Assembly (NCBI GenBank): GCA_948144175.1
Contig: CANXME010002420.1
Span: 2,306,001 to 2,370,000, forward strand
DNA length: 64,000 nucleotides
From: Closterium sp. NIES-65
Lineage: Eukaryota; Streptophyta; Zygnematophyceae; Desmidiales; Closteriaceae
Direction: 5' to 3'
The translations under genes were made by a program, and so were the position numbers. The notes below the pieces were generated by a model. That model did not search any database. It worked only from the letters and a program-made list of their open reading frames with translations, and had not been told where the DNA came from. Shown here one piece after another: positions 37,960-55,431 of this stretch (positions are counted from its first letter, which is position 1; the number at the start of each line of letters is the position of its first letter).

Positions 37960-39978
37960 GATCATGCACAACAGATCATCGCCAATCTACAGATGACCGG
38001 CAAAAATTAATCGATGCCCTCCTACGTAACTCATGTCATCTACCAGATGTCTGCTCACACCGTCAACTTGGCGGTGCAGTCTACAATAAGTGTTGTGTCA
38101 TTGCAGCTCTTGAAGATGAAACTGCAAGACCTTGCTTCATGTGTGGGCATGTCGCCCAAGCGTTCGGTTGCTTGGATTGCGCACCATGTGGCAGATACAG
38201 TACTACCGGGCTGGCTGCACAAGCTCGTCTAGGACAGCCCATTGAGATGGGCATCGATACACAAGATGATGACACGTTTCCGACTAATGAAGCCTCTCTT
38301 GAACATGTTCATGATTTTTTTGCAGGTACAATAGCATTGTTGTGGATTGTACAGAGCCAAATTTAAAAAAATGTTGAGCGTGTTGTATCCAGCCTACCAT
38401 CCATGCACGCAAGATGTAAACTGAGAGCAGTTATGCGATATGTAAGGTGAAAAGCGATCATGCACAATAGATCATTGCCAATCTACTGCGATCATGCACA
38501 ACAGATCATCGCCAATCTATGGATGACCGGCAAAAATCAATCGATGCCCTCCTACGTAACTCATGTCATCTACCAGATGTCTACTCACATCGTCAAATTG
38601 GCGGTGCAGTCTACAATAAGTGTTGTGTCATTGCAGCTCTTGAAGATGAAACCGCAAGACCTTGCTTCATGTGTGGGCATGTCGCCCAAGCCTTCGGTTG
38701 CTTGGATTGCGCACCATGTGGCAAATACAGTACTACCGGGCTGGCTGCACAAGCTCGTCTAGGACAGCCCATTAAGATGGGCATCGATACTCAAGATGAT
38801 GACACGTTTCCGACTAATGAAGCCTCTCTTGAACATGTTCATGATTTTTTTGCAGGTACAATAGCATTGTTGTGGATTGTATAGAGCCAAATTTCAAAAA
38901 ATGTTGAGCGTGTTGTATCCAGCCTACCATCCATGCACACAAGATGTAAACTGAGAGCAGTTATGCGATATGTAAGGCGAAAAGTGATCATGCACAACAG
39001 ATCATCGCCAATCTACGGATGACCGGCAAAAATCAATCGATGCCCTCCTACGTGACTCATGTCATCTACCAGATGTCTGCTCACATCGTCAACTTGGCGG
39101 TGCAGTCTACAATAAGTGTTGTGTCATTGCAACTCTTGAAGATGAAACTGCAAGACCTTGCTTCATGTGTGGGCATGTCGCCCAAGCGTTCGGTTGCTTG
39201 GATTGCGCACCATGTGGCAAATACAGTACTACCGAGCTGGCTACATAAGCTCGTCTAGGACAGCCCATTGAGATGGGCATCGATACACAAGATGATGACA
39301 CGTTTCGGACTCATGAAGCCTCTCTTGAACATGTTCATGATTTTTTTGCAGGTACAATAGCATTGTTGTGGATTGTATAGAGCCAAATTTCAAAAAATGT
39401 TGAGCGTGTTGTATCCAGCCTACCATCCATGCACGCAAGATGTAAACTGAGAGCAGTTATGCAATATGTAAGGCGAAAAGTGATCATGCACAACAGATCA
39501 TCGCCAATCTACGGATGACCGGCAAAAATCAATCGATGCCCTCCTACGTGACTCATGTCATCTACTAGATGTCTGCTCACATCGTCAACTTGGCGGTGCA
39601 GTCTACAATAAGTGTTGTGTCATTGCAGCTCTTGAAGATGAAACTGCAAGACCTTGCTTCATGTGTGGGCATGTCGCCCAAGCGTTCGGTTGCTTGGATT
39701 GCGCACCATGTGGCGAATACAGTACTACCGGGCTGGCTGCACAAGCTCGTCTGGGACACCCGATTGAGATGGGCATCGATACACAAGATGATGACACGTT
39801 TCCGACTAATGAAGCCTCTCTTGAACATGTTCATGATTTTTTTGCAGGTACAATAGCATTGTTGTGGATTGTATAAAGCCAAATTTCAAAAAATGTTGAG
39901 CGTGTTTTATCCAGCTTACCATCCATGCACGTAAGATGTAAACTGAGAGCAGCTATGCGATATGTAAGGCGAAAAGCA
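37960..39978 (+). repeat. Four-copy 496-bp tandem array of a gag fragment
   Basis: gatgaccggcaaaaat recurs at 37,992, 38,522, 39,018 and 39,514 (spacing 530, 496, 496; the first interval has an extra 34 bp duplication of catgcacaa-type sequence). The units are almost identical. Each reads HAQQIIANL-MTGKN-SMPSYVTHVIYQM in the D/B2 Gag alignment and then PCFMCGHVAQAFGCLDC, a knuckle-like Cys/His cluster. Each unit ends with tttttttgcaggtacaat, which looks like a 3' splice site but may be chance. Confidence 0.9.
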
Positions 39979-45615: not shown

Positions 45616-45744
45616 TGTCGAACTATATGTGCTATAGTCTGTTTAGGCTGTAGTGGGGTAGTCAATATGGGGTACAACACTTTAGGTTTCCTACTTGTAC
45701 TCCTCATGTTGCTCAATGCATCATTCCTTCCTCAGGTTCTCACA
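45616..45744 (+). repeat. 5' LTR of K
   Basis: tgtcgaactatatgtgc to ttctcaca, then the PBS. Lineage-I core (ggctgtagtggggtag, ggggtacaacac). Confidence 0.92.
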
Positions 45745-46733
45745 TGGTATCAGAGCAGGTTCCCTAGTGGGAACGCTTACTAAGGGCCCACCACGATTTC
45801 TTTTCCCTGCCCGGAGCGCGCTTTTCTTTTGCCCGAGTCGCGCCCCGTGTGCCCTACCTACCGTCGCGTCCTAGCCCTTAGCGGCCCGTCCCGCCCTTCC
45901 CAGGCCCCTAGCGGCCCCCTCTCACAGCCCCATCGCCGCCCTGCCGGCCCCGAAGCCGACCCTAGCGGCCCCGTCGCCGCCCTATCGGCCCCGTCGCCGA
46001 CCCTTGCGGCCCAGTCGCCGCCCTGCCGGCCCTGTCGCCGACCCTTGCGGCCCCGTCGCCGCCCTATCGGCCCCGTCGCCGACCCTTGCGGCCCCATCGC
46101 CGCCCTGTCGGCCCCGTCGCCGACCCTTGCGGCCTCGTCGCCGCCCTAAGCGGCCCTGTCGCCGCCCTAGCGGCCCCGTAGCCGCCCTATCGGCCCCGTC
46201 GCCGACCCGTGCGGCCCCGTCGCCGCCCTGTCGGCCACGTCGCCGACCCGTGTCGGCCTCGTCGCTGACCCTTGCGGCCCCATCGCCGCCCTTGCGGCCC
46301 CGTCACCGCCCTCAGCGGCCCCGTCGCCGCCCTAGGCAGCCCTGTCGCCGACCTTCCCGGCCCCGTCGCCGACCCTAAGCGGCCCCGTCGCCGACCCTAC
46401 CGGCCCCGCCGCCGACCCTCGCAGCCCTGTCGCCGCCCTTAGCGGCCTCGCCGCCACCCTTAACGCCCCGTCGCCGTCTCTACCGGCCCCTTCCGCGCCG
46501 CCCAGCAGCAGAGCCGCCGAGCCGCCCAGCAGCCGAGCCGCCGAGCCGCCCAGCAGCCGAACCGCCGAGCCGCCCAGCAGCCGAGCCGCCGAGCCGCCCA
46601 GCAGCCGAGCCGCCGAGCCGTCCAGCCGCCAAGCCGCCCAGCAGCCGAGCCGCCGAGCCGCCCTTTCTTCCGGCGCGCCCCGGCCCTACTTCATTGGACT
46701 AGTAAGCTCACTCCCTAATAGGCCACTGCAGTT
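45745..46733 (+). repeat. Element K leader: GC-rich repeats
   Basis: From about 45,940 to 46,490 ggccccgtcgccgaccct and ggccccgtcgccgccct units alternate at roughly 18- to 36-bp spacing; 46,500-46,660 is built of gccgagccgcccagcagcc (about 31-bp) units. Long open frames here follow from base composition. Ends at the Gag ATG. Confidence 0.78.
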
Positions 46734-48090
46734 ATGGCTACCCCCAGTGTCCTTACCTTTGATACTGAGGGTCGTGCTATTGATTTTGAGGTCTGGGTCG
46801 ATGATCTCCAGCTGTTCTTACAGTGCGATAGGGCGGACGGACTCTCACTGTTCGATCTCACCTCTGGTGTCTCTCCTGTCCCACCTGCTACAGCTGACAG
46901 CACTGTTCGCTCACACTGGGCCACACGCGATGTCGCTGCACGCCTTGCTGTGCGTCCCCACTTACCGACCACTAAGCGTGCGCACTTTAGCCAGTACCAG
47001 AGTGCTCAAACCTTGTACGACGCTGTAATTGCACGCTACTCTTCCCCTACCACTGCTGCGCTTAGCCGCCTCATGCTGCCGTACCTGTTCCGTGAACTTG
47101 CTGCATTTCCCACAGTCGCTGACCTCATTACGCACCTTCGCACTAGTGACACTCGCTACCACGGTGCCCTTCCTGCTGAATTCTGTGCCAAGAACCCCCC
47201 CCCCCATGTACATCACCCTCTACTACATAGTCACCCGGCTCCCTGACTCCCTTCGCTTAGTCAGGGACCACTTCCTCTCAGTTTGCCCCACCACACTCAC
47301 TGTTAACCTCCTCGAGGAGCGCCTCCTAGCAGCAGAGAAGAGCATACTCGCTGTAGGAGCCTCTCGTGGTGAACACCGCACCCCCGTCTTTGAGGGGTGT
47401 TCTCCCTACCCCCTCTTGCCCTCTGTTGCTTCTGCTGCTGCGGCCGACCTCGTTGGTTTCGAGTCGGTCGGCGCTGCCTCTGTCCCTAGCGGGAGACGCC
47501 GCACCGGTAAGGGCAAGGGGGGCAAGGGCGTTGGGGGGGCCCGTGGGGGCAGTGGAGGTGGTGGTGGAGGCAGTGGAGGGGGTGGGGGTGGTGGTGGGAC
47601 TGGTGGTGGGGGTGGAGGTGTCGGTGGCAGCAATGGAGGCGGAGGAGGCGGCGGTTGTGGCGGAGGGAGCGGAGGCGGAGGCGGTAGCGGAGGCGGCGGA
47701 GGTGGCGGAGGTGGCGGTGGAGCTGGTCACGGCTCTGCGCAGAGGAGTGCCTCCGGTGGTGGTCCACGCCAGCAGCAGCAGCGCGGTCGTGAGACCCTGT
47801 CCCCTCAGCAGCTTCGTGAGTGGTACGCTGCGCATCAGCGGGGTGGGGGTACTGGTCCCTGCACCTACGTCCTTCGTACAGGCGACCGCGCTGGTGAGCA
47901 GTGCGGAGGCCCGCACTCCACCCAGCGCTGCTTCGGCTGCCTGACGGACGCTTGGCGTCATCAGTTCCCTGACTCCTCAGAGATCCCTTGCTGGGGAGAG
48001 CTGTCTAGGGCGGGGGTTGCTATCTTTGATCTTGACTATGATGATATTCTTGGTGCCATGTATGCTCTGACTGTTACCTGTGTGTTCCGC
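46734..48090 (+). pseudogene. Element K: Gag
   Basis: ATG at 46,734 (MATPSVLTFDTEGRAIDFEV, WVDDLQLFLQCD). Capsid-like region VIARYSSPTTAALSRLMLPYLF and YIVTRLPDSLRLVRDHFLSVCPTTLTV to about 47,480; Gly-rich tract 47,530-47,740; ETLSPQQLREWYAAHQRGG near 47,790; CTYVLRTGDRAGEQCGGPH and STQRCF (CX13CX3HX4C) near 47,860-47,935; tail LSRAGVAIFDLDYDDILGAMYAL. The Cys/His motif takes the usual place of a zinc knuckle. Fossil. Confidence 0.87.
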
Positions 48091-48199
48091 CTGACCTGGG
48101 CATTGAGGCTGCTGCTCTAGGTGCTGGTGAGGCTGCTTCTCCAGGTGCTAGTGCGTCTGCTGCCCCAGGTGCTGGTGAGTCTGCTCTCTCAGGTACTTC

Positions 48200-49640
48200 G
48201 TCGACTCAGGCCTTGCACACCTTCACCCTTGACTCGGGTGCTTCCCGCTCCTCTCGAGACCGCACACCGCTTACGCCGCTTAGTCGGCCGGTTGCGGACT
48301 CCCTGGCGGACCCCTCTGGGGGTCCTGTCCTTGCTAGCTTCTCCACTGTCTTACCATGTCCGGCAGGCCCCTCTGGCACTCTGTCAGGTCTATACCTCCA
48401 CTCGTTCTCTACGAACTTGGTGAGTGGAGCTGATCTATAGGGTCGGGGGGTTGACTAGTTCACACCTGCGAGTCAGCGGGTGACCCACTGTACGTGTGCT
48501 CGGACGGGCCGACACTTGGCCACGTTTACCCGTCAGCCGGGGTCGAGCCTGTACACACTAACCAATGAGTTTCCTCCTGTTCTTGAGTCTGGTCAGGTAG
48601 CTGCGTCGGGTCAGGTGTTTGCTGCTGCGTCCAGGTCTGGTCCTGAGTCTGCGCCCTGCTCGTGTCGTCTCCTGTCCCACCAGACTCTCCTTTGGAACCA
48701 CCGCCTTGGTCACCCCTCCCTGCCTCGTCTCCGAGGCATGGCCTCCCTTGTCCTTGTCTCTGTTTTCCCCTATCCCTCCCTCCCCTACCTCCGGGGCCGG
48801 CCCCTACCTGCGTCCCCTGCGTCGAGGGGCGGCAGCGCGCCGCTCCTCACTCCTCCGAGTTTCCTCCGACAGAGGCTCCTCTGCAGCCTCTTCACATGGA
48901 CGTGTGGGGCCCTGCCCGCGTCCGTGGACAGGGTCACGAGCGTTAATTCCTGTTGGTGGTTGACGACTACTCGCGTTACACCACAGTGTTCCCCTTGAGC
49001 AGCAAGGGTTCCGTCACTGAGGTGCTGATCGACTGGATCCGCGCAGCTCGTCTCCAGCTCAGAGAGAGTTTTGGCTCAGACTTTCCTGTTCTGCGTCTGC
49101 ACTCTGACAAAGGAGGGGAGTTTTCCTCTGCCCGTCTGGGAGCCTTCTGACGTGCACAGGGCATCCGCCAGACCTCTCCCAGAAAAATGGGATTGCAAAG
49201 CGCCGCATTGGCATGGTCATGGACGTCGCTTGTACGTCCATGATCCATGCGGCTGCTCCCCATTTTCTGTGGCCGTTTGCGGTTCAGTACGCGGCGCATC
49301 AGCTCAACCTTCAGCCCCGGGTCTCCTTGCCAGAGACCTCCCCCACCTTGCGGTGGACGGGGAAGGTTGGCGATGCGTCTGCGTTTCGGGTCTGGGGATC
49401 TCGGGCGTTTGTCCGCGACTTGTCTTCGGACAAGCTGTCCCCTCGTGCTGTTCCGTGCGTCTTCCTTGGCTTCCCCCTTGACGCGCCTGGCTGGCGGTTC
49501 TACCACCCCACCTCGCGCCGTGTTTTGTCCTCCCAGGACGTCACCTTTGACGAGTCGGTGCCTTACTACCGTCTCTTCCCCTACCGCACTGCGCGTCCCC
49601 CAGCCGCTGCTCTTCCTTGCGCCCGGTCCTAGCCCGGCAG
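48200..49640 (+). pseudogene. Element K: protease, pre-integrase and integrase
   Basis: HTFTLDSGASRS is the protease site (48,213 on). TLLWNHRLGHPSLPRLRGM and TCVPCVEGRQRAAPHSS form the HHCC head; LHMDVWGPARVRGQGHER, VVDDYSRYTTVFPL and LRLHSDKGGEFSS the first catalytic parts; IHAAAPHFLWPFAVQYAAHQLNL and FRVWGSRAFVRDLSSDKLSPRAVPCVFLGF the C-terminal part to about 49,620. Fossil. Confidence 0.88.
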
Positions 49641-49659
49641 ACCCCCTCCTGCTCAGGGT

Positions 49660-50500
49660 CCTGCCCCGTCAGGTGTGTCCCAGGTAGACGCAGTTGAGCC
49701 TGTCAAGGTAGCTGTTGACTCTCGTGCTGCTAGGGGCGCTGCGCCTGCGGTGCCGGGTCTGTGGGTGCGGAGCCTGGGGGTGCTGAGTCTCGGGGTGCTG
49801 AGCGTGGGGGTGCGGAGCCTGGGGGTGCTGAGCCTGGGGGTGCGGAGCCTGGGGGTGCGGAGCCTGGGGGTGCTAAGCCTGGGGGTGCGGAGCCTGGGGG
49901 AGCTGGGTCTACTCGTGTGGCTTCTGGCGGTGTTTCGTCGAGGTGAGAGCCCCTCTCTCTGCAGGAGCTGCGCGAGTGGTTCGCCCGGCGTTGGAGCCGT
50001 GCTGCTGGAGCTGGAGGTACTACTGTTGCTGCTGGTCCTGGAGGTGCTCGTCCTGGCGGCTCTGGAGCTGCTGGGACTGGGAGTCCTGCTGGGGGTGCTA
50101 CTGGAGCTGGAGCTGCTGGAGCTGGAGCTGGAGCTGCTGGCGGTGCTGGAGCTGACGGTCCTGCTGGAGTTGGTACTACTAGAGCTGCTAGAGCTGGAGC
50201 TGCTGGGGGTGTTGGCGCTGGTGGTTCTGCTGGCGCTGGTGCTTCTGAGGGAGCTCGAGTTTGCGCTGTTGGAGCTGGAGGTACTGCTGGCGCTAGTGCT
50301 GCCGCTGGGGGTACTGGTGCTGTCCCTGCTAGTTCTGGCGGCACTAAGCGGCCGCGGCCATACTTCGTTCCGCTCCTTGAGCAGGTTCTTGGTCTCCAGC
50401 CCTCTACTAATCCTGCTCCTCCCTTCACAGTCTGTCCACTCGCGGTCCACAGTCTGTCCAGTCGCGGTCACAGTTATAGCGTGCCTCCCCCCTGCCTGCT
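49660..50500 (+). repeat. Element K: integrase-RT linker
   Basis: 49,750-49,910 is a 15-bp repeat (agcctgggggtgcgg) reading GGAEP; 49,955-49,990 reads LSLQELREWFARRW; 50,000-50,340 is a ggagctgctggagctgg repeat. Confidence 0.8.
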
Positions 50501-50509
50501 CCTTCTCCC

Positions 50510-52600
50510 TACACTGGTCCTACTGGAGGTCTTGCTGAGCGTCGTGAGCCTGGGTCTCGTCCTACGTCGCCTGTTCGTGCTGCTCGCACTAGTGGTCGTG
50601 CTCCGCGTCCGCGTCCTCCTACGGTCCCCGTCACACAACAGATGGCACTGCGTCCTTCCACTGCTCCTTTGCGTGCCTCGTTGCCGTCTCCTCCAGAGTC
50701 CTCTCTTCCTACTCTTGCTGACCCGGAGTCTGACTCTCTTCGTTCTGCCAGTGCTACTGTTACGCGTCTCCTGGCTACTGTTATCACTGACCCTTCTTTT
50801 GAGTCCACTGCTGCGTCTGCCTTAGTTGCTGAGCTTGTCAACTTTGATGCTCACTGTCGTCTAGACTACGCTGCTAGTCTTGTTGCTGAGTTTGAGTCTC
50901 TCCGTCCTCCGTCCGTCGGGGGTGAGTGTGCTCTTAGCACAGACGTCCTTGAGGACAGGCAGGAGGAGTTCCAGTGTTTTTCTGCTGCCTTGCCTCATCT
51001 CGTGTCCACGCTGATTGCCCCTGAGGGAGATCCGGATGCACCAGACATCCCGACTCCTCAATCGTACGCTGAGGCGATCAAGGGTCCCTACTACTCACAG
51101 TGGAAGTCAGCCATGGACGCAGAGATGGCTTCTTGGAAGTCCACAGGCACCTACGTCGACGAGGTTCCCCCACCTAGGGCGAACATCGTCAGTGGCATGT
51201 GGATTTTCAGGGGTTCTCCGCCTGTCTTCAAGGCGCGTTATGTGGCTCGAGGCTTCAGTCAGCGGCAGGGAGTTGACTACTTTCTGACCTTCTCTCCCAC
51301 CCCGAAGATGACCACTCTTCGGGTGCTGCTGCAGATAGCCGCTCAGCGCGACTACGAGCTTCACTCACTTGACTTCAGCACAGCTTTCCTGCAGGGCAGC
51401 CTGCACGAGGAGATCTAGCTGCGCCGCCCACCTGGCTTCACTGGGTCGTTCCCTCTTGGTACCTAGTGGAGCCTCCGGCGGCCAGTCTACGGTCTCCGCA
51501 AGGCGCCGTGTGAGTGGCACGACACACCGAGGACTACACTTGCGGCTCTTGGGTTTGCTCCTTCTTCTGCAGACCCGTTGCTGTTTCTGCGCACCGACAC
51601 CTCTTTGCCGCCGTTCTACATCCTCGTGTACGTCGACGACTTGGTCTTCGCCACTGCTGACACTGCTGGACTCGCCTACGTGAAGTCCGAGCTGCAGAAG
51701 GGGTACACGTGCACAGACCTGGGTGAATTGCGTAGCTACGTTGGCTTGCAGATCACCCACTACCCTGACTCAGTCACACATGGTGCAGCAGGTCCTTCAG
51801 CGCTTCGGCTTCACGTTCTCCTTGCCTCAGGCCACTCCTCTGCCTACTCGCCACTCGCTCTCAGCTTTGCCTTCGGATGAGTCTGTAGAGCCGAGTGGCC
51901 CGCAACCAGAGCTTGTTGGCTGCCTCATGTACCTGATGACCTGCACACGACCTAACCTAGCATACCCTCTTAGCATCTTGGCACGCTATGTGGCTCCTGG
52001 GAGACACCGACTAGAGCACATGGCTGTAGCGAAGAGGGTGTTGCGCTACTTGTGCAGTACATCGGGCATGGGGCTAGTTCTTGGAGGGCGACGTCCAGTG
52101 GTCCTCACTGGGCACGCAGACGCTTCTTGGGCTGACGACCAGGCTACGCAGCGGTTGTCAGAGGGTTACACCTTCAGCCTTGGTTCCGGCTCTGTCTCGT
52201 GGCGGTCTACCCGCTCGTCTTCTGTTCTCGGCTCCAGCTATGAGGCCGAGATCTACGCAGGGGCCATGGCTGCACAGGAGCTACGCTGGCTCACCTACCT
52301 ACTGACTGACCTTGGAGAGCAGCCTCGTTCTCCTCCATTTTTGTACGTAGACAACAAGGCCATGCTGGCCTTGTGTCGGGAGCACAGACTGGAGCGCAGA
52401 ACGAAGCACATTGCTCTTCGCTACTTCCTTGCTCGTGAGCTGCTGCAGCGCGGTTAGCTGTGGCTTGCTTACGTGGCCTTTGAGGCCAACACTGCTGATA
52501 TCTTAACCAAGGAACTTCCGCCTTGTGATCATCAGCGCTTGTGTAATTTGCTAGGTCTTGTGCCTACTTGGCCTCACTTGCTCACCTCTTGTCTTTGTTT
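50510..52600 (+). pseudogene. Element K: RT and RNase H
   Basis: MALRPSTAPLRASLPSPPESSLPTLADPESDSL, ALSTDVLEDRQEEFQCF, SYAEAIKGPYYSQWKSAMDAEMASW, FKARYVARGFSQRQGVDYF and TLRVLLQIAAQRDYELHSLDFSTAFLQGSLHEEI are RT. FYILVYVDDLVFATAD is the YVDD box. RNase H shows LTGHADASWADDQATQRLSEGYTF, YEAEIYAGAMAAQELRWL, YVDNKAMLALC and FEANTADILTKELPPCDHQ. 52,600-52,815 is the 3' UTR. Fossil. Confidence 0.9.
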
Positions 52601-52825
52601 GTACTGTGATCTATATATACCTGCACTTGCATGCATACTCTTGCTAGGTTGTGATCATCGCCTTGCTTGTTCTTCTTGATGTATAACTCTACTTGTGAAC
52701 TGGCCTTGTGGCCTTGTGCTTGTGCTCAGATTGTGTGGTGACATTGTGATCCACCCTGGGCTTGCCTTGCTTCTCTTGACTGGTCTTGTGACCCCTTGTT
52801 CTCCCCCACTTTGCCTATGGGGGTG

Positions 52826-52955
52826 TGTTGAACTATATGTGCTATAGTCTGTTTAGGCTGTAGTGGGGTAGTCAATATGGGGTACAACACTTTAGGGTCT
52901 CCTACTTGTACTCCTCATGCTGCTCAATGCATCATTCCTTTCTCAGATTCTCACA
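52826..52955 (+). repeat. 3' LTR of K
   Basis: tgttgaactatatgtgc to ttctcaca; PPT just before. Confidence 0.92.
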
Positions 52956-52960
52956 CCTGC

Positions 52961-54394
52961 TTGATCCTCCACATGCAAATGTTTCCAGCGTTACACCTGA
53001 AGACCGCGTTGACGTGAGGGTTATTCGCTCGGGACATTTATCTGGAAAAGGAGGTTAACATAAGAGTTAGTAAAACAACGCCTCAAGAAGCAGTAGCAGG
53101 TTTCTTCAGTTTGAGCAACACTAGTGAAGACGGCCGTTGAGGAGAGAGAGGAGGAGGAGGATGTAAATAACCCAATTCAGTACAGTCCGTTACCGCGCTG
53201 GCTCGTCTAGAGTGCCTAGCAAAGGGAGGGGGAACGAGACAAACTCCATTGCCGTGCCACCACTCCTCTGCTCCAACGCACCGCCGTCTCTCCGTGCCCT
53301 TGTGACGCGCCGCAGCCCCGCCGCGCCACACCACGCCCGCTGGCCCTCCCCGAGGCGGCCCCCGGCCTGCGCAGGTGGGCGGCCGCCGCACCCCCGCCCC
53401 GCGCCGGGCCGCTCCCGCGAGCTCTCCATGGCGCGGCCCCCGGCCTCCGTGTGCGAGCGGACGCTGCGCCCTCGCCCTGCACCCACCAGCCCTACCTTCC
53501 GTAGGCAGGCGACCACCGCGCAGAGCCCACAGACCCTCAATGGCGCAGCCCCCGGCCTTTCGCGGGCGGGCGGCCTCCGCGCCCCCGCGCCACGCCCGCC
53601 GGCACCCCCCGGTGGCCACCGTACCCCGTGGCGGCCTGCATTGCGCCCGCCGGTCCTCCCCGGCGCGGTGTGCGGGCGACCGCTGCGCCCCCGCCCCGTC
53701 CCGTGCTGCGCCCGCGGGCCCTTCCCGGCGCGGCCCCCGGCCTCCGCGGGCGGGCGGGCGGCCGCCGCGCCGCGCCCGCCGGCCCTCCCCGGTGCGGCCC
53801 CCGGCCTCCGCGGGCGGGCGGGCGGGCAGGCGGCCACCGTGTCTCTGCCCTGTCGTGCGCCAGGCGCGACCCCCGGCCGTTGCTGGTAGGCGGGTGTCGC
53901 GCGCACGCGCCACGCAAATCGCAGCTTTCTTTGCACACCTGAAATCATGACCTACATATGCAATTCGGTTTACAATAGGGTTACCTTACTCTTTTCGACT
54001 GGACGCCATGCATATTCGGCTATGTCAAAATACCTAAAACCACAATCTTATATACACAAAGCAAAAGTTATAATCTCTACCGTTCAATACATAAGAAAAG
54101 GGAACACACAACAACAACAAACTACAATCAAACAATAACCTAGAGATTAATTATTAAAAAATTCAAACTTCACCGCTTTCAATTCTAAAAAGCTTGCTTT
54201 CTTTCATGTAGTAATGGCATTGCCTTTTTTTTTTAGTATTTTAAAATCCAAGGAAAATATCAGACTAATGTGCTAACACATTTCAAGGGTTACAAGGGTG
54301 GAAAAAGTGGCTCAACCGTTTGATAATGAGACGTGGGTGGAGGTAATAACCTCATGCCCACGTTTTGTACTAAATCGGGCGTTTGACGCGACTC
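52961..54394. other. Unassigned region with a GC-rich degenerate repeat block
   Basis: 52,961-53,200 and 53,950-54,394 are ordinary or AT-rich with nothing recognised. 53,250-53,930 is extremely GC-rich and built from ggcccccggcctccgcgggc-type units (seen near 53,357, 53,433, 53,542, 53,731 and 53,795; spacing 64-189 bp). All frames are open over long distances; the minus strand gives an Arg/Ala/Gly/Pro-rich 276-residue frame (53,913-53,083) without any recognisable domain, which I do not accept as a gene. Confidence 0.5.
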
Positions 54395-54399
54395 AATAT

Positions 54400-54746
54400 T
54401 GTCAGAGGTCCACTGGTGATCCCCGATTGATCCTAGGGAAGGGTTACAGGCACGTTGTCCTGGGGGGTTATGGGCGCACTGACCCGCTACTTAAACAAGC
54501 CCTTTTATCCCAATGGTCTAGTGGTTGGGATTCTGACATGGTATCAGAGCGAAGGTCTCGGGTTCGAATCCCGGTGTATGCACTTCGGGCATCCCAGTGC
54601 GGGGGGGTGTCAGAGGTCCACTGGTGATCTCCGATTGATCCTAGGGAAGGGTTACAGGCACGTTGTCCTGGGGGGTTATGGGCGCACTGACCCGCTACTT
54701 AAACAAGCCCTTTCATCCCAATGGTCTAGTGGTTGGGATTCTGACA
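54400..54746 (+). mobile_element. TRIM/SMART-type miniature LTR element, looks whole
   Basis: 347 bp: LTRs 54,400-54,538 and 54,608-54,746 (139 bp each, 2 differences), TSD aatat (54,395-54,399 and 54,747-54,751), interior of only 69 bp. PBS tggtatcagagc directly after the LTR (54,539-54,550) and PPT gcggggggg before the 3' LTR. No coding capacity, so it must use enzymes of other elements. The end of the LTR plus the interior holds tRNA-like pol III boxes: tggtctagtgg (54,514-54,524, A box) and ggttcgaatcc (54,561-54,571, B box). Recent by LTR identity. Confidence 0.93.
54514..54571 (+). promoter_or_regulatory. tRNA-like pol III A and B boxes across the TRIM LTR/interior border
   Basis: A box tggtctagtgg in the LTR (also present in the 3' LTR) and B box ggttcgaatcc in the interior, 47 bp apart start to start, a spacing usual for tRNA genes. 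The LTR end tcccaatggtctagtgg resembles the 5' half of tRNA-Glu, and ctcgggttcgaatcccgg can form a T-arm. The PBS lies between the two boxes. Promoter activity is inferred. Confidence 0.55.
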
Positions 54747-54751
54747 AATAT

Positions 54752-55431
54752 TGCCCATTCCTACATTCCAAACTGCTTCAGTTTCAAAATACGAGAATTT
54801 GAAAAGTGTTACCTTTTAGAAATAGTCATTTATATTTATTGTGGAAGCGAAGGGGATGCAATTTTTGTGCATCGTCGATAGGCGGTAATCGCCCTTCCCG
54901 AATATAACGTGTAGGTTGGAGATCATTCTTCCTCATTTTTTTAATTGCTCATACTTCATAAGTAAGATCAATGCTTATTGTTTCTTCTATCCCTACCCTC
55001 TTGCCCCATTTTGTTGTTCTCCTTCCATTCCCTCCCCCTGTTTCAGGTCATCGTGTTGCCTCGCTTATTCCCTCTGCTCATCTTCCGGCTGCCTCCGCTA
55101 CTACGTGCTGTACATACCCGCCGGAAGGCGACCCCACAGCAGCCTCACCCCCTTAATATCGTAGATGCGAGAATAATATTTTCTTATATATTTCAACCCC
55201 AGATTCATCTTCGTGTAGGATTACGAGTGCTGAAATATACGAAGCTCCTTCTCACGGTAGCCGCTCACCCACACCCCCTCGCAGCATGCGGCTCCTTGCA
55301 AGTTGGTGAAGAGTAGAGAGTCAGGAGGGTAGGGCACGTTCGCTGGCTCTGCACCCGATCCTCTTTCGAAACCAAATGACGTGTTCTCATACACTTCCAC
55401 CACTTTCCCATCAAGGATTATCACTACTAGA
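54752..55431. other. Unassigned region; possible small host exon on the minus strand
   Basis: 54,752-55,210 shows nothing firm. On the minus strand 55,431-55,221 reads LVVIILDGKVVEVYENTSFG, FERGSGAEPANVPYPPDSLL and FTNLQGAACCEGVW, less low-complexity than its surroundings, and ends in a stop at about 55,221. No family is recognised and no splice structure can be fixed, so a decayed or partial host exon is only one option. Confidence 0.25.

What the first reader, a model, noticed from the sequence alone, without database searches (positions are those of the whole stretch)
54400..54746. Miniature LTR element with tRNA-like pol III boxes
A 347-bp TRIM with perfect TSD has an A box in its LTR end (tggtctagtgg) and a B box (ggttcgaatcc) just inside the interior, the PBS lying between them at a tRNA-like distance. 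The LTR end resembles the 5' half of tRNA-Glu. Cassandra elements use a 5S-derived pol III promoter; a tRNA-type promoter split over the LTR/interior border would be a different solution and could start transcription in or just before the LTR.
Basis: partly seen in the sequence, partly recalled or inferred. Interest (0 to 1): 0.72.

Follow-up and report, generated by a model that had tools for sequence, protein, structure and literature searches.

The report
Mini-retrotransposon with split tRNA-like promoter
A tiny, abundant plant-type mobile element carries the two halves of a tRNA-gene promoter on either side of the site where its copying starts, so it may be transcribed by the polymerase that makes tRNAs, by a layout that differs from the related elements described so far.

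Summary
Window 54400-54746 is a 347-bp TRIM: 139-bp LTRs (2 differences), 69-bp interior, TSD AATAT. The PBS matches host initiator tRNA-Met for 14 nt. An A box (54514-54524) lies at the LTR end; the only B box (54561-54571) lies in the interior, 36 bp on.

The family is large: 4,582 genome sites hold A box plus PBS within 3 mismatches. In copies chosen by U3, blind to both boxes, 44 of 49 PBS-bearing units keep the A box and 46 of 49 the B box within one mismatch. A second subfamily, diverged in U3, keeps the A box-PBS-B box module.

Added here: the A box equals that of host tRNA-Pro-like genes at near-identical spacing; a lone TTTT just upstream, present in 47 of 52 3' LTRs, is a candidate pol III terminator giving a Cassandra-like short R; two recombinant copies have junctions at the predicted RNA ends.

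Transcription is not shown. TRIMs with tRNA promoters are known (Helenus, 2024), with both boxes inside each LTR. A promoter split by the PBS is a new variant.

The parts
54395..54399 (+). target-site duplication AATAT, left copy
   Evidence: 46 of 55 complete family members in the fetched loci have a perfect 5-bp TSD
54400..54538 (+). 5' LTR, 139 bp, TGTCAGA...TCTGACA
54465..54475 (+). U3 11-mer GGGTTATGGGC, antisense to the initiator tRNA-Met anticodon arm (possible second primer contact; speculative)
   Evidence: 10 of 2,000 shuffled LTRs do as well; found after the fact
54496..54498 (+). CAA triplet, candidate pol III start (start of R)
   Evidence: inferred from plant tRNA genes (PMC11700998 passages); junction of the hybrid LTRs in L012 lies here; AAA or TAA in several other copies
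54503..54506 (+). TTTT, only run of four T in the element; candidate pol III terminator position
   Evidence: T4 here in both LTRs of 45 of 52 single-unit elements
54507..54531 (+). hairpin ATCCCAA-[A box as 11-nt loop]-TTGGGAT
   Evidence: closing pair A-T 134, G-C 14, A-C 5, G-T 4, other 6, of 163 LTRs
54514..54524 (+). A box TGGTCTAGTGG
54539..54607 (+). interior, 69 bp
54539..54552 (+). PBS for initiator tRNA-Met, 14 nt
54559..54573 (+). T-arm-like hairpin CGGG/CCCG around the B box
54561..54571 (+). B box GGTTCGAATCC
54599..54607 (+). polypurine tract GCGGGGGGG
   Evidence: sequence
54608..54746 (+). 3' LTR, 139 bp
54711..54714 (+). terminator position in the 3' LTR, TTTC in this copy (T4 lost here)
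54747..54751 (+). target-site duplication AATAT, right copy

Best explanation
A TRIM whose RNA is made by RNA polymerase III from a tRNA-type (type 2) promoter laid across the LTR/interior border: TFIIIC binds the A box at the end of the 5' LTR and the B box in the interior, with the primer-binding site occupying the place of the anticodon arm. Transcription would start about 6-17 nt upstream of the A box, near CAA 54496-54498, run through the interior and U3, and stop at TTTT in the 3' LTR, leaving an R of about 10 nt at both ends. Because the B box lies outside the LTR, only the 5' end of a full copy is a promoter; 3' LTRs and solo LTRs carry an A box alone. Initiator tRNA-Met primes, and a Copia-type element supplies enzymes and integrase. 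Shown: anatomy, family size, box retention, A box and spacing as in host tRNA genes, TSD. Inferred: polymerase, start, stop, R and helper.
For: A box identical to 10 host genes of tRNA-Pro type; A end to GGTC 25 nt in those genes against 26 (subfamily 2) and 29 (subfamily 1). Boxes kept in copies chosen blind to them: A <=1 mismatch 44 of 49 (PBS-bearing) and 52 of 56 (no PBS), B <=1 mismatch 46 of 49, spacing 33-37 in the 42 of 49 where both were recognised. Six subfamily-2 units not selected on the A box differ from the window copy at 15 of 462 module sites (54503-54550 and 54554-54582) but at 65 of 390 sites of 54400-54464; the background within subfamily 1 (29 units) is 92 of 2,233 and 85 of 1,885. 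T4 only at the R position in 45 of 52 single-unit elements, in the 3' LTR of 47 of 52 (the 52 mix loci chosen in different ways). None of five TATA-like words in the LTR. L053 array, one insertion with TSD AAGGC...AACAAGCCCTTT joined to TGTCAG, i.e. predicted RNA 3' end joined to the first base of U3. L012, one insertion with TSD TAGCT: both outer LTRs are TRIM U3 joined to a different R-U5 at the predicted start of R.
Against: No RNA data. Within the family the boxes are not more conserved than neighbouring sequence: A box exact in 31 of 49, B box in 35 of 49, other 11-mers 6 to 40 of 49; in 29 subfamily-1 units the A box differs at 20 of 319 sites, a higher rate than U3 54400-54464 at 85 of 1,885, the B box at 6 of 319. 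Both boxes fit a strict consensus in only 32 of 49. A sublineage has a one-base deletion in the A box. Module sharing between subfamilies may come from template switching: three of the six units above have a window-type interior tail, so mosaics are common. T4 is the shortest terminator run, also sits just downstream of the predicted start, and its absence elsewhere is not significant (62% of shuffles have none). The window copy has TTTC in its 3' LTR. CAA is AAA or TAA in several copies. The recombinant junctions are single cases.
Confidence: 0.5

Rival explanations
1. An ordinary pol II TRIM. The boxes are relics of a tRNA or SINE piece captured at birth of the family; they are hitch-hiking and have no promoter role.
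For: No excess conservation of either box over neighbours within the family; a sublineage with a deleted A-box base exists; mosaics show that template switching can spread the module between subfamilies.
Against: Two subfamilies keep both boxes at tRNA spacing while U3 has diverged; none of five TATA-like words in the LTR, whereas the Copia LTR at 45616 has CTATAG (weak evidence).
Confidence: 0.29
2. The tRNA-like module serves reverse transcription, not transcription: the A-box hairpin and T-arm-like hairpin flank the PBS and present it to, or mimic, the initiator tRNA primer; the U3 11-mer antisense to the anticodon arm would be a second contact, as in the two-part Ty3 PBS (recalled).
For: A box is the exact loop of a 7-bp stem with a covarying closing pair; PBS lies between two hairpins; U3 11-mer reached by 10 of 2,000 shuffles.
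Against: Only one pair covaries, possibly one event; the loop letters match host tRNA-gene A boxes, which structure alone does not need; the B-box region is not in register with an extended PBS, whose match ends at 14 nt.
Confidence: 0.13
3. It is a plain member of Helenus: the whole promoter sits in the LTR and the interior B box is coincidental.
For: Same kind of element, similar size to the only reported plant Helenus (Selaginella, LTR 120, interior 85, 5-bp TSD; PMC10886601).
Against: The LTR holds no B box: one B-box match in the whole element, in the interior, against two A-box matches.
Confidence: 0.04

Closest known systems
Helenus (TRIMp3 class; Kojima 2024, PMC10886601; introduction, results, discussion, figure legends and tables read)
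   Same: TRIM with tRNA-derived pol III boxes, PBS and PPT, 5-bp TSD in plants and fungi, fungal families tied to Copia helpers
   Different: In Helenus the tRNA-like sequence lies inside each LTR; here A box in the LTR, PBS in the middle, B box in the interior
Cassandra (5S-derived TRIM; PMC7215508 and PMC10853983, passages)
   Same: LTR element with pol III promoter and terminator, short R (18 bp as stated in PMC10886601), tandem arrays
   Different: 5S promoter in the LTR; no 5S match here
SMART / FRetro129 (PMC3281118; passages)
   Same: Very small LTR element
   Different: TATA box reported, no tRNA or polymerase III mention; sequence not compared
Host genes of tRNA-Pro type (isotype by recall)
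   Same: Identical A box and near-identical distance to GGTC
   Different: PBS and LTR end replace the anticodon arm; element not called a tRNA
Short-LTR Copia in the window, 45616-52955
   Same: LTR of about 130 bp, PBS TGGTATCAGAGC, G-rich PPT, RVT_2 match
   Different: No A/B module at its PBS; LTR starts TGTCGAA in this copy

Membership tests
TRIM | two LTRs, under 1 kb, PBS and PPT, TSD | tested here: met
   46 of 55 members with perfect 5-bp TSD
TRIM | no coding capacity | tested here: met
   no ORF of 30 aa or more lies wholly inside 54400-54746; four of 31-115 aa run across its ends
Helenus | tRNA-derived sequence with box A and box B inside the LTR | tested here: not met
   one B-box match in the element, in the interior
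Helenus | 5-bp TSD (plants, fungi), PBS and PPT present | tested here: met
   46 of 55 perfect 5-bp TSD; PBS
Helenus | sequence similarity to Helenus-1_SMo | not testable with these tools
Cassandra | 5S rRNA-derived sequence in the LTR | tested here: not met
   no 5S among the 4 Rfam matches at E<=10 in 54300-54850
TRIMp3 (pol III-transcribed TRIM) | transcription by RNA polymerase III | not testable with these tools
   no RNA data
TRIMp3 (pol III-transcribed TRIM) | A and B boxes at type 2 spacing, kept across copies | tested here: met
   <=1 mismatch in 44 of 49 (A) and 46 of 49 (B); spacing 33-37 nt in the 42 of 49 where both were recognised; but no excess conservation over neighbours
SMART | sequence of FRetro129 | not tested
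   sequence not at hand

The most novel reading that the evidence does not exclude
A retrotransposon lineage turned a tRNA-Pro-like gene into its LTR/PBS/interior border: the anticodon arm became LTR end plus primer-binding site, so promoter and priming site are one module. The split makes promoter activity depend on an intact 5' end, silencing 3' and solo LTRs, and the T4 just upstream of the A box ends the RNA, giving a minimal R of about 10 nt.
Probability: 0.36. Interest if true: 0.75.

Novelty: new variant of a known kind. Interest (0 to 1): 0.6.

Why it matters
It would be another promoter layout for pol III-driven LTR elements, with the promoter split by the PBS, which I did not find described. 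It would solve a problem other LTR elements share, two identical promoters, since only the 5' LTR is completed by a B box. With thousands of copies in one genome it makes pol III use, RNA ends and helper sharing by miniature LTR elements directly testable by end mapping and box removal.

Tried and rejected
tRNA-Glu origin: the pattern built on it returned 14 places, each with a PBS-like stretch as in the TRIM; Glu-type genes found with another pattern differ in the D arm; neither search was exhaustive. B box as part of an extended initiator tRNA-Met PBS: matching stops after 14 nt. Selection on the boxes within the family: no excess over neighbouring 11-mers. Absence of other TTTT runs as evidence: not significant. 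LTR truncations as a map of the RNA 3' end: of 163 distinct LTRs six lacked 6 or more nt of the standard end: L100 and L105 stop at or just before CCCT, L018 stops earlier, L012 twice is the hybrid LTR and L053 the array junction; too few to count. Older copies: one decayed gap pattern gave no match. Plasmid collection: no match. Cross-species comparison: no plant genome other than the host's was at hand.

The first A/B tally used a wrong PBS window and was replaced; one search had the B box off by one and was replaced. In the 3' LTRs one search shows 2 of 36 and 1 of 36 differences at 54711-54746.

Full report
What is there. Window 54400-54746 is a complete TRIM: LTRs of 139 bp with 2 differences, interior 69 bp, TGTCAGA...TCTGACA ends, TSD AATAT. 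The interior opens with a 14-nt match to the antisense of the host initiator tRNA-Met, found at 25 places in the genome (three printed, identical), and ends in a G-rich PPT. The A box is in the LTR end (54514-54524), the sole B box in the interior (54561-54571), 36 bp apart; dinucleotide shuffles of the element give such a pair in 2 of 20,000.

Family. The host genome (874 Mb, 2,400 contigs, unnamed) holds 4,582 sites of A box plus PBS within 3 mismatches, 6,806 sites of a U3 34-mer within 3 mismatches and 3,258 exact PBS plus B box sites within 20 nt; reversed-pattern controls were 0 in each. The fetched loci gave 55 complete elements differing in sequence (some are duplicated loci sharing flanks): 52 single units, 3 with two units; 46 of 55 have a perfect 5-bp TSD.

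Are both boxes kept? To avoid bias, 69 loci chosen on U3 only (30, 20, 19; L097, fetched for another reason, left out) gave 105 LTRs after identical ones were merged, 49 of them followed by a PBS. A box: 31 exact, 13 with one mismatch, 4 with two, 1 with five. B box: 38 exact (either of two forms), 8 with one, 2 with two, 1 with six; the last is L086, where the TRIM LTR is followed by a different interior. In the 56 LTRs without PBS the A box is exact in 43 and has one mismatch in 9. A-to-B spacing was 33 in 6, 35 in 1, 36 in 34 and 37 in 1 of the 42 units where both were recognised. Against my reading: other 11-mers of the same region are kept exactly in 6 to 40 of 49, so neither box stands out, and both boxes meet a strict consensus in 32 of 49. 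The sample is of young copies (0-1 mismatch in the 34-mer that fetched them) and has little power.

Between subfamilies. A second subfamily differs in the 5' part of U3, in a 3-nt indel between PBS and B box and in the interior tail (27-nt indel). My first comparison was biased because its copies had been fetched by the A box and PBS. Six subfamily-2 units not so selected (4 in U3-chosen loci) differ from the window copy at 15 of 462 sites of the module 54503-54550 plus 54554-54582, and at 65 of 390 sites of 54400-54464. Within subfamily 1 (29 units from U3-chosen loci) the figures are 92 of 2,233 and 85 of 1,885. So U3 has diverged between subfamilies and the module has not, beyond copy noise. 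The module limits were set. Three of the six units have no change in the window-type interior tail, so they are mosaics, and sharing by template switching is a real alternative to selection.

Origin. The A box is identical, and the distance from A box end to GGTC is 25 there, 26 in subfamily 2 and 29 in the window copy. I read this as a tRNA-Pro-like ancestor whose anticodon arm became LTR end plus PBS. The tRNA model score is sub-threshold (15.9 of 29 bits), so the descent is inferred.

Predicted RNA. TTTT occurs in the window copy once, at 54503-54506. In 52 single-unit elements T4 at that place is in both LTRs of 45, in the 3' LTR of 47, and T4 elsewhere in 6. CAA lies 4 nt upstream of the T run; in flowering-plant tRNA genes upstream CAA motifs and downstream T runs of 4 or more are usual (PMC11700998, passages). 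Start at CAA and stop at T4 would leave about 10 nt repeated, comparable to the 18 bp stated for Cassandra (PMC10886601, introduction). Two recombinants fit. In L053, within one array bounded by AAGGC repeats, an LTR ends at CAAGCCCTTT and is joined to the first base of U3 of the next unit, as if reverse transcriptase passed from a finished cDNA end to the 3' end of another RNA. In L012, bounded by TAGCT, both outer LTRs are TRIM U3 followed by a different, unidentified R-U5, joined where R should start. Each is a single case. The window copy itself has TTTC in its 3' LTR.

Structure. The A box is the loop of a 7-bp hairpin; the closing pair is A-T in 134, G-C in 14, A-C in 5, G-T in 4 and other in 6 of 163 LTRs, perhaps one event. 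The U3 11-mer GGGTTATGGGC is antisense to the initiator tRNA-Met anticodon arm (10 of 2,000 shuffles): noted, not claimed.

Helper. The window holds a Copia-type element at 45616-52955 with LTRs of about 130 bp, PBS TGGTATCAGAGC and an RVT_2 match. L034 and L019 join other LTRs and TRIM parts at the PBS, consistent with shared particles; this does not identify the helper.

Known or new. Among the papers listed by the searches, Helenus (PMC10886601) is the one TRIM with a tRNA-type promoter that I saw; its tRNA-like part lies in the LTR, and its only plant case is Selaginella. In the searched main text of Gao 2016 (PMC4717578) tRNA, polymerase III, promoter and PBS have no occurrence. I found no description of a promoter split by the PBS in that library, which misses most subscription journals. 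Verdict: new variant of a known kind.

Noticed in passing
window 45616-52955 (+): Copia-type element with very short LTRs (about 130 bp), PBS TGGTATCAGAGC and RVT_2 domain, ending 1.4 kb upstream of the TRIM; the 5-bp flanks do not match as a TSD.
   Followed up: partly
L034; L097 5110-6049 (-): Small element with 129-nt repeats whose PBS carries an inserted TRIM unit (other LTR, PBS, TRIM interior, TRIM LTR, PBS, other interior): recombination at the PBS.
   Followed up: partly
L012 1173-1710 (+): Composite TRIM, one insertion with TSD TAGCT, outer LTRs lacking A box and T4, inner LTR with both.
   Followed up: yes
L053 691-1997 (-): TRIM array with one LTR joined to the next LTR start at the T run, one insertion with TSD AAGGC.
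   Followed up: yes
window 54380-54760; G000 C2122:2459161-2459541 (-) and C1047:49099-49479 (-): The element plus about 20 bp of flank on the left and 14 on the right recurs at 100% identity at two further places, one about 99 kb away in inverted orientation: duplication or assembly artefact.
   Followed up: partly
window 37960-39977: Tandem array of about 0.5-kb units, 96% alike.
   Followed up: no
L106, L109, L116: Mosaic units with subfamily-2 U3 and a window-type interior tail.
   Followed up: partly
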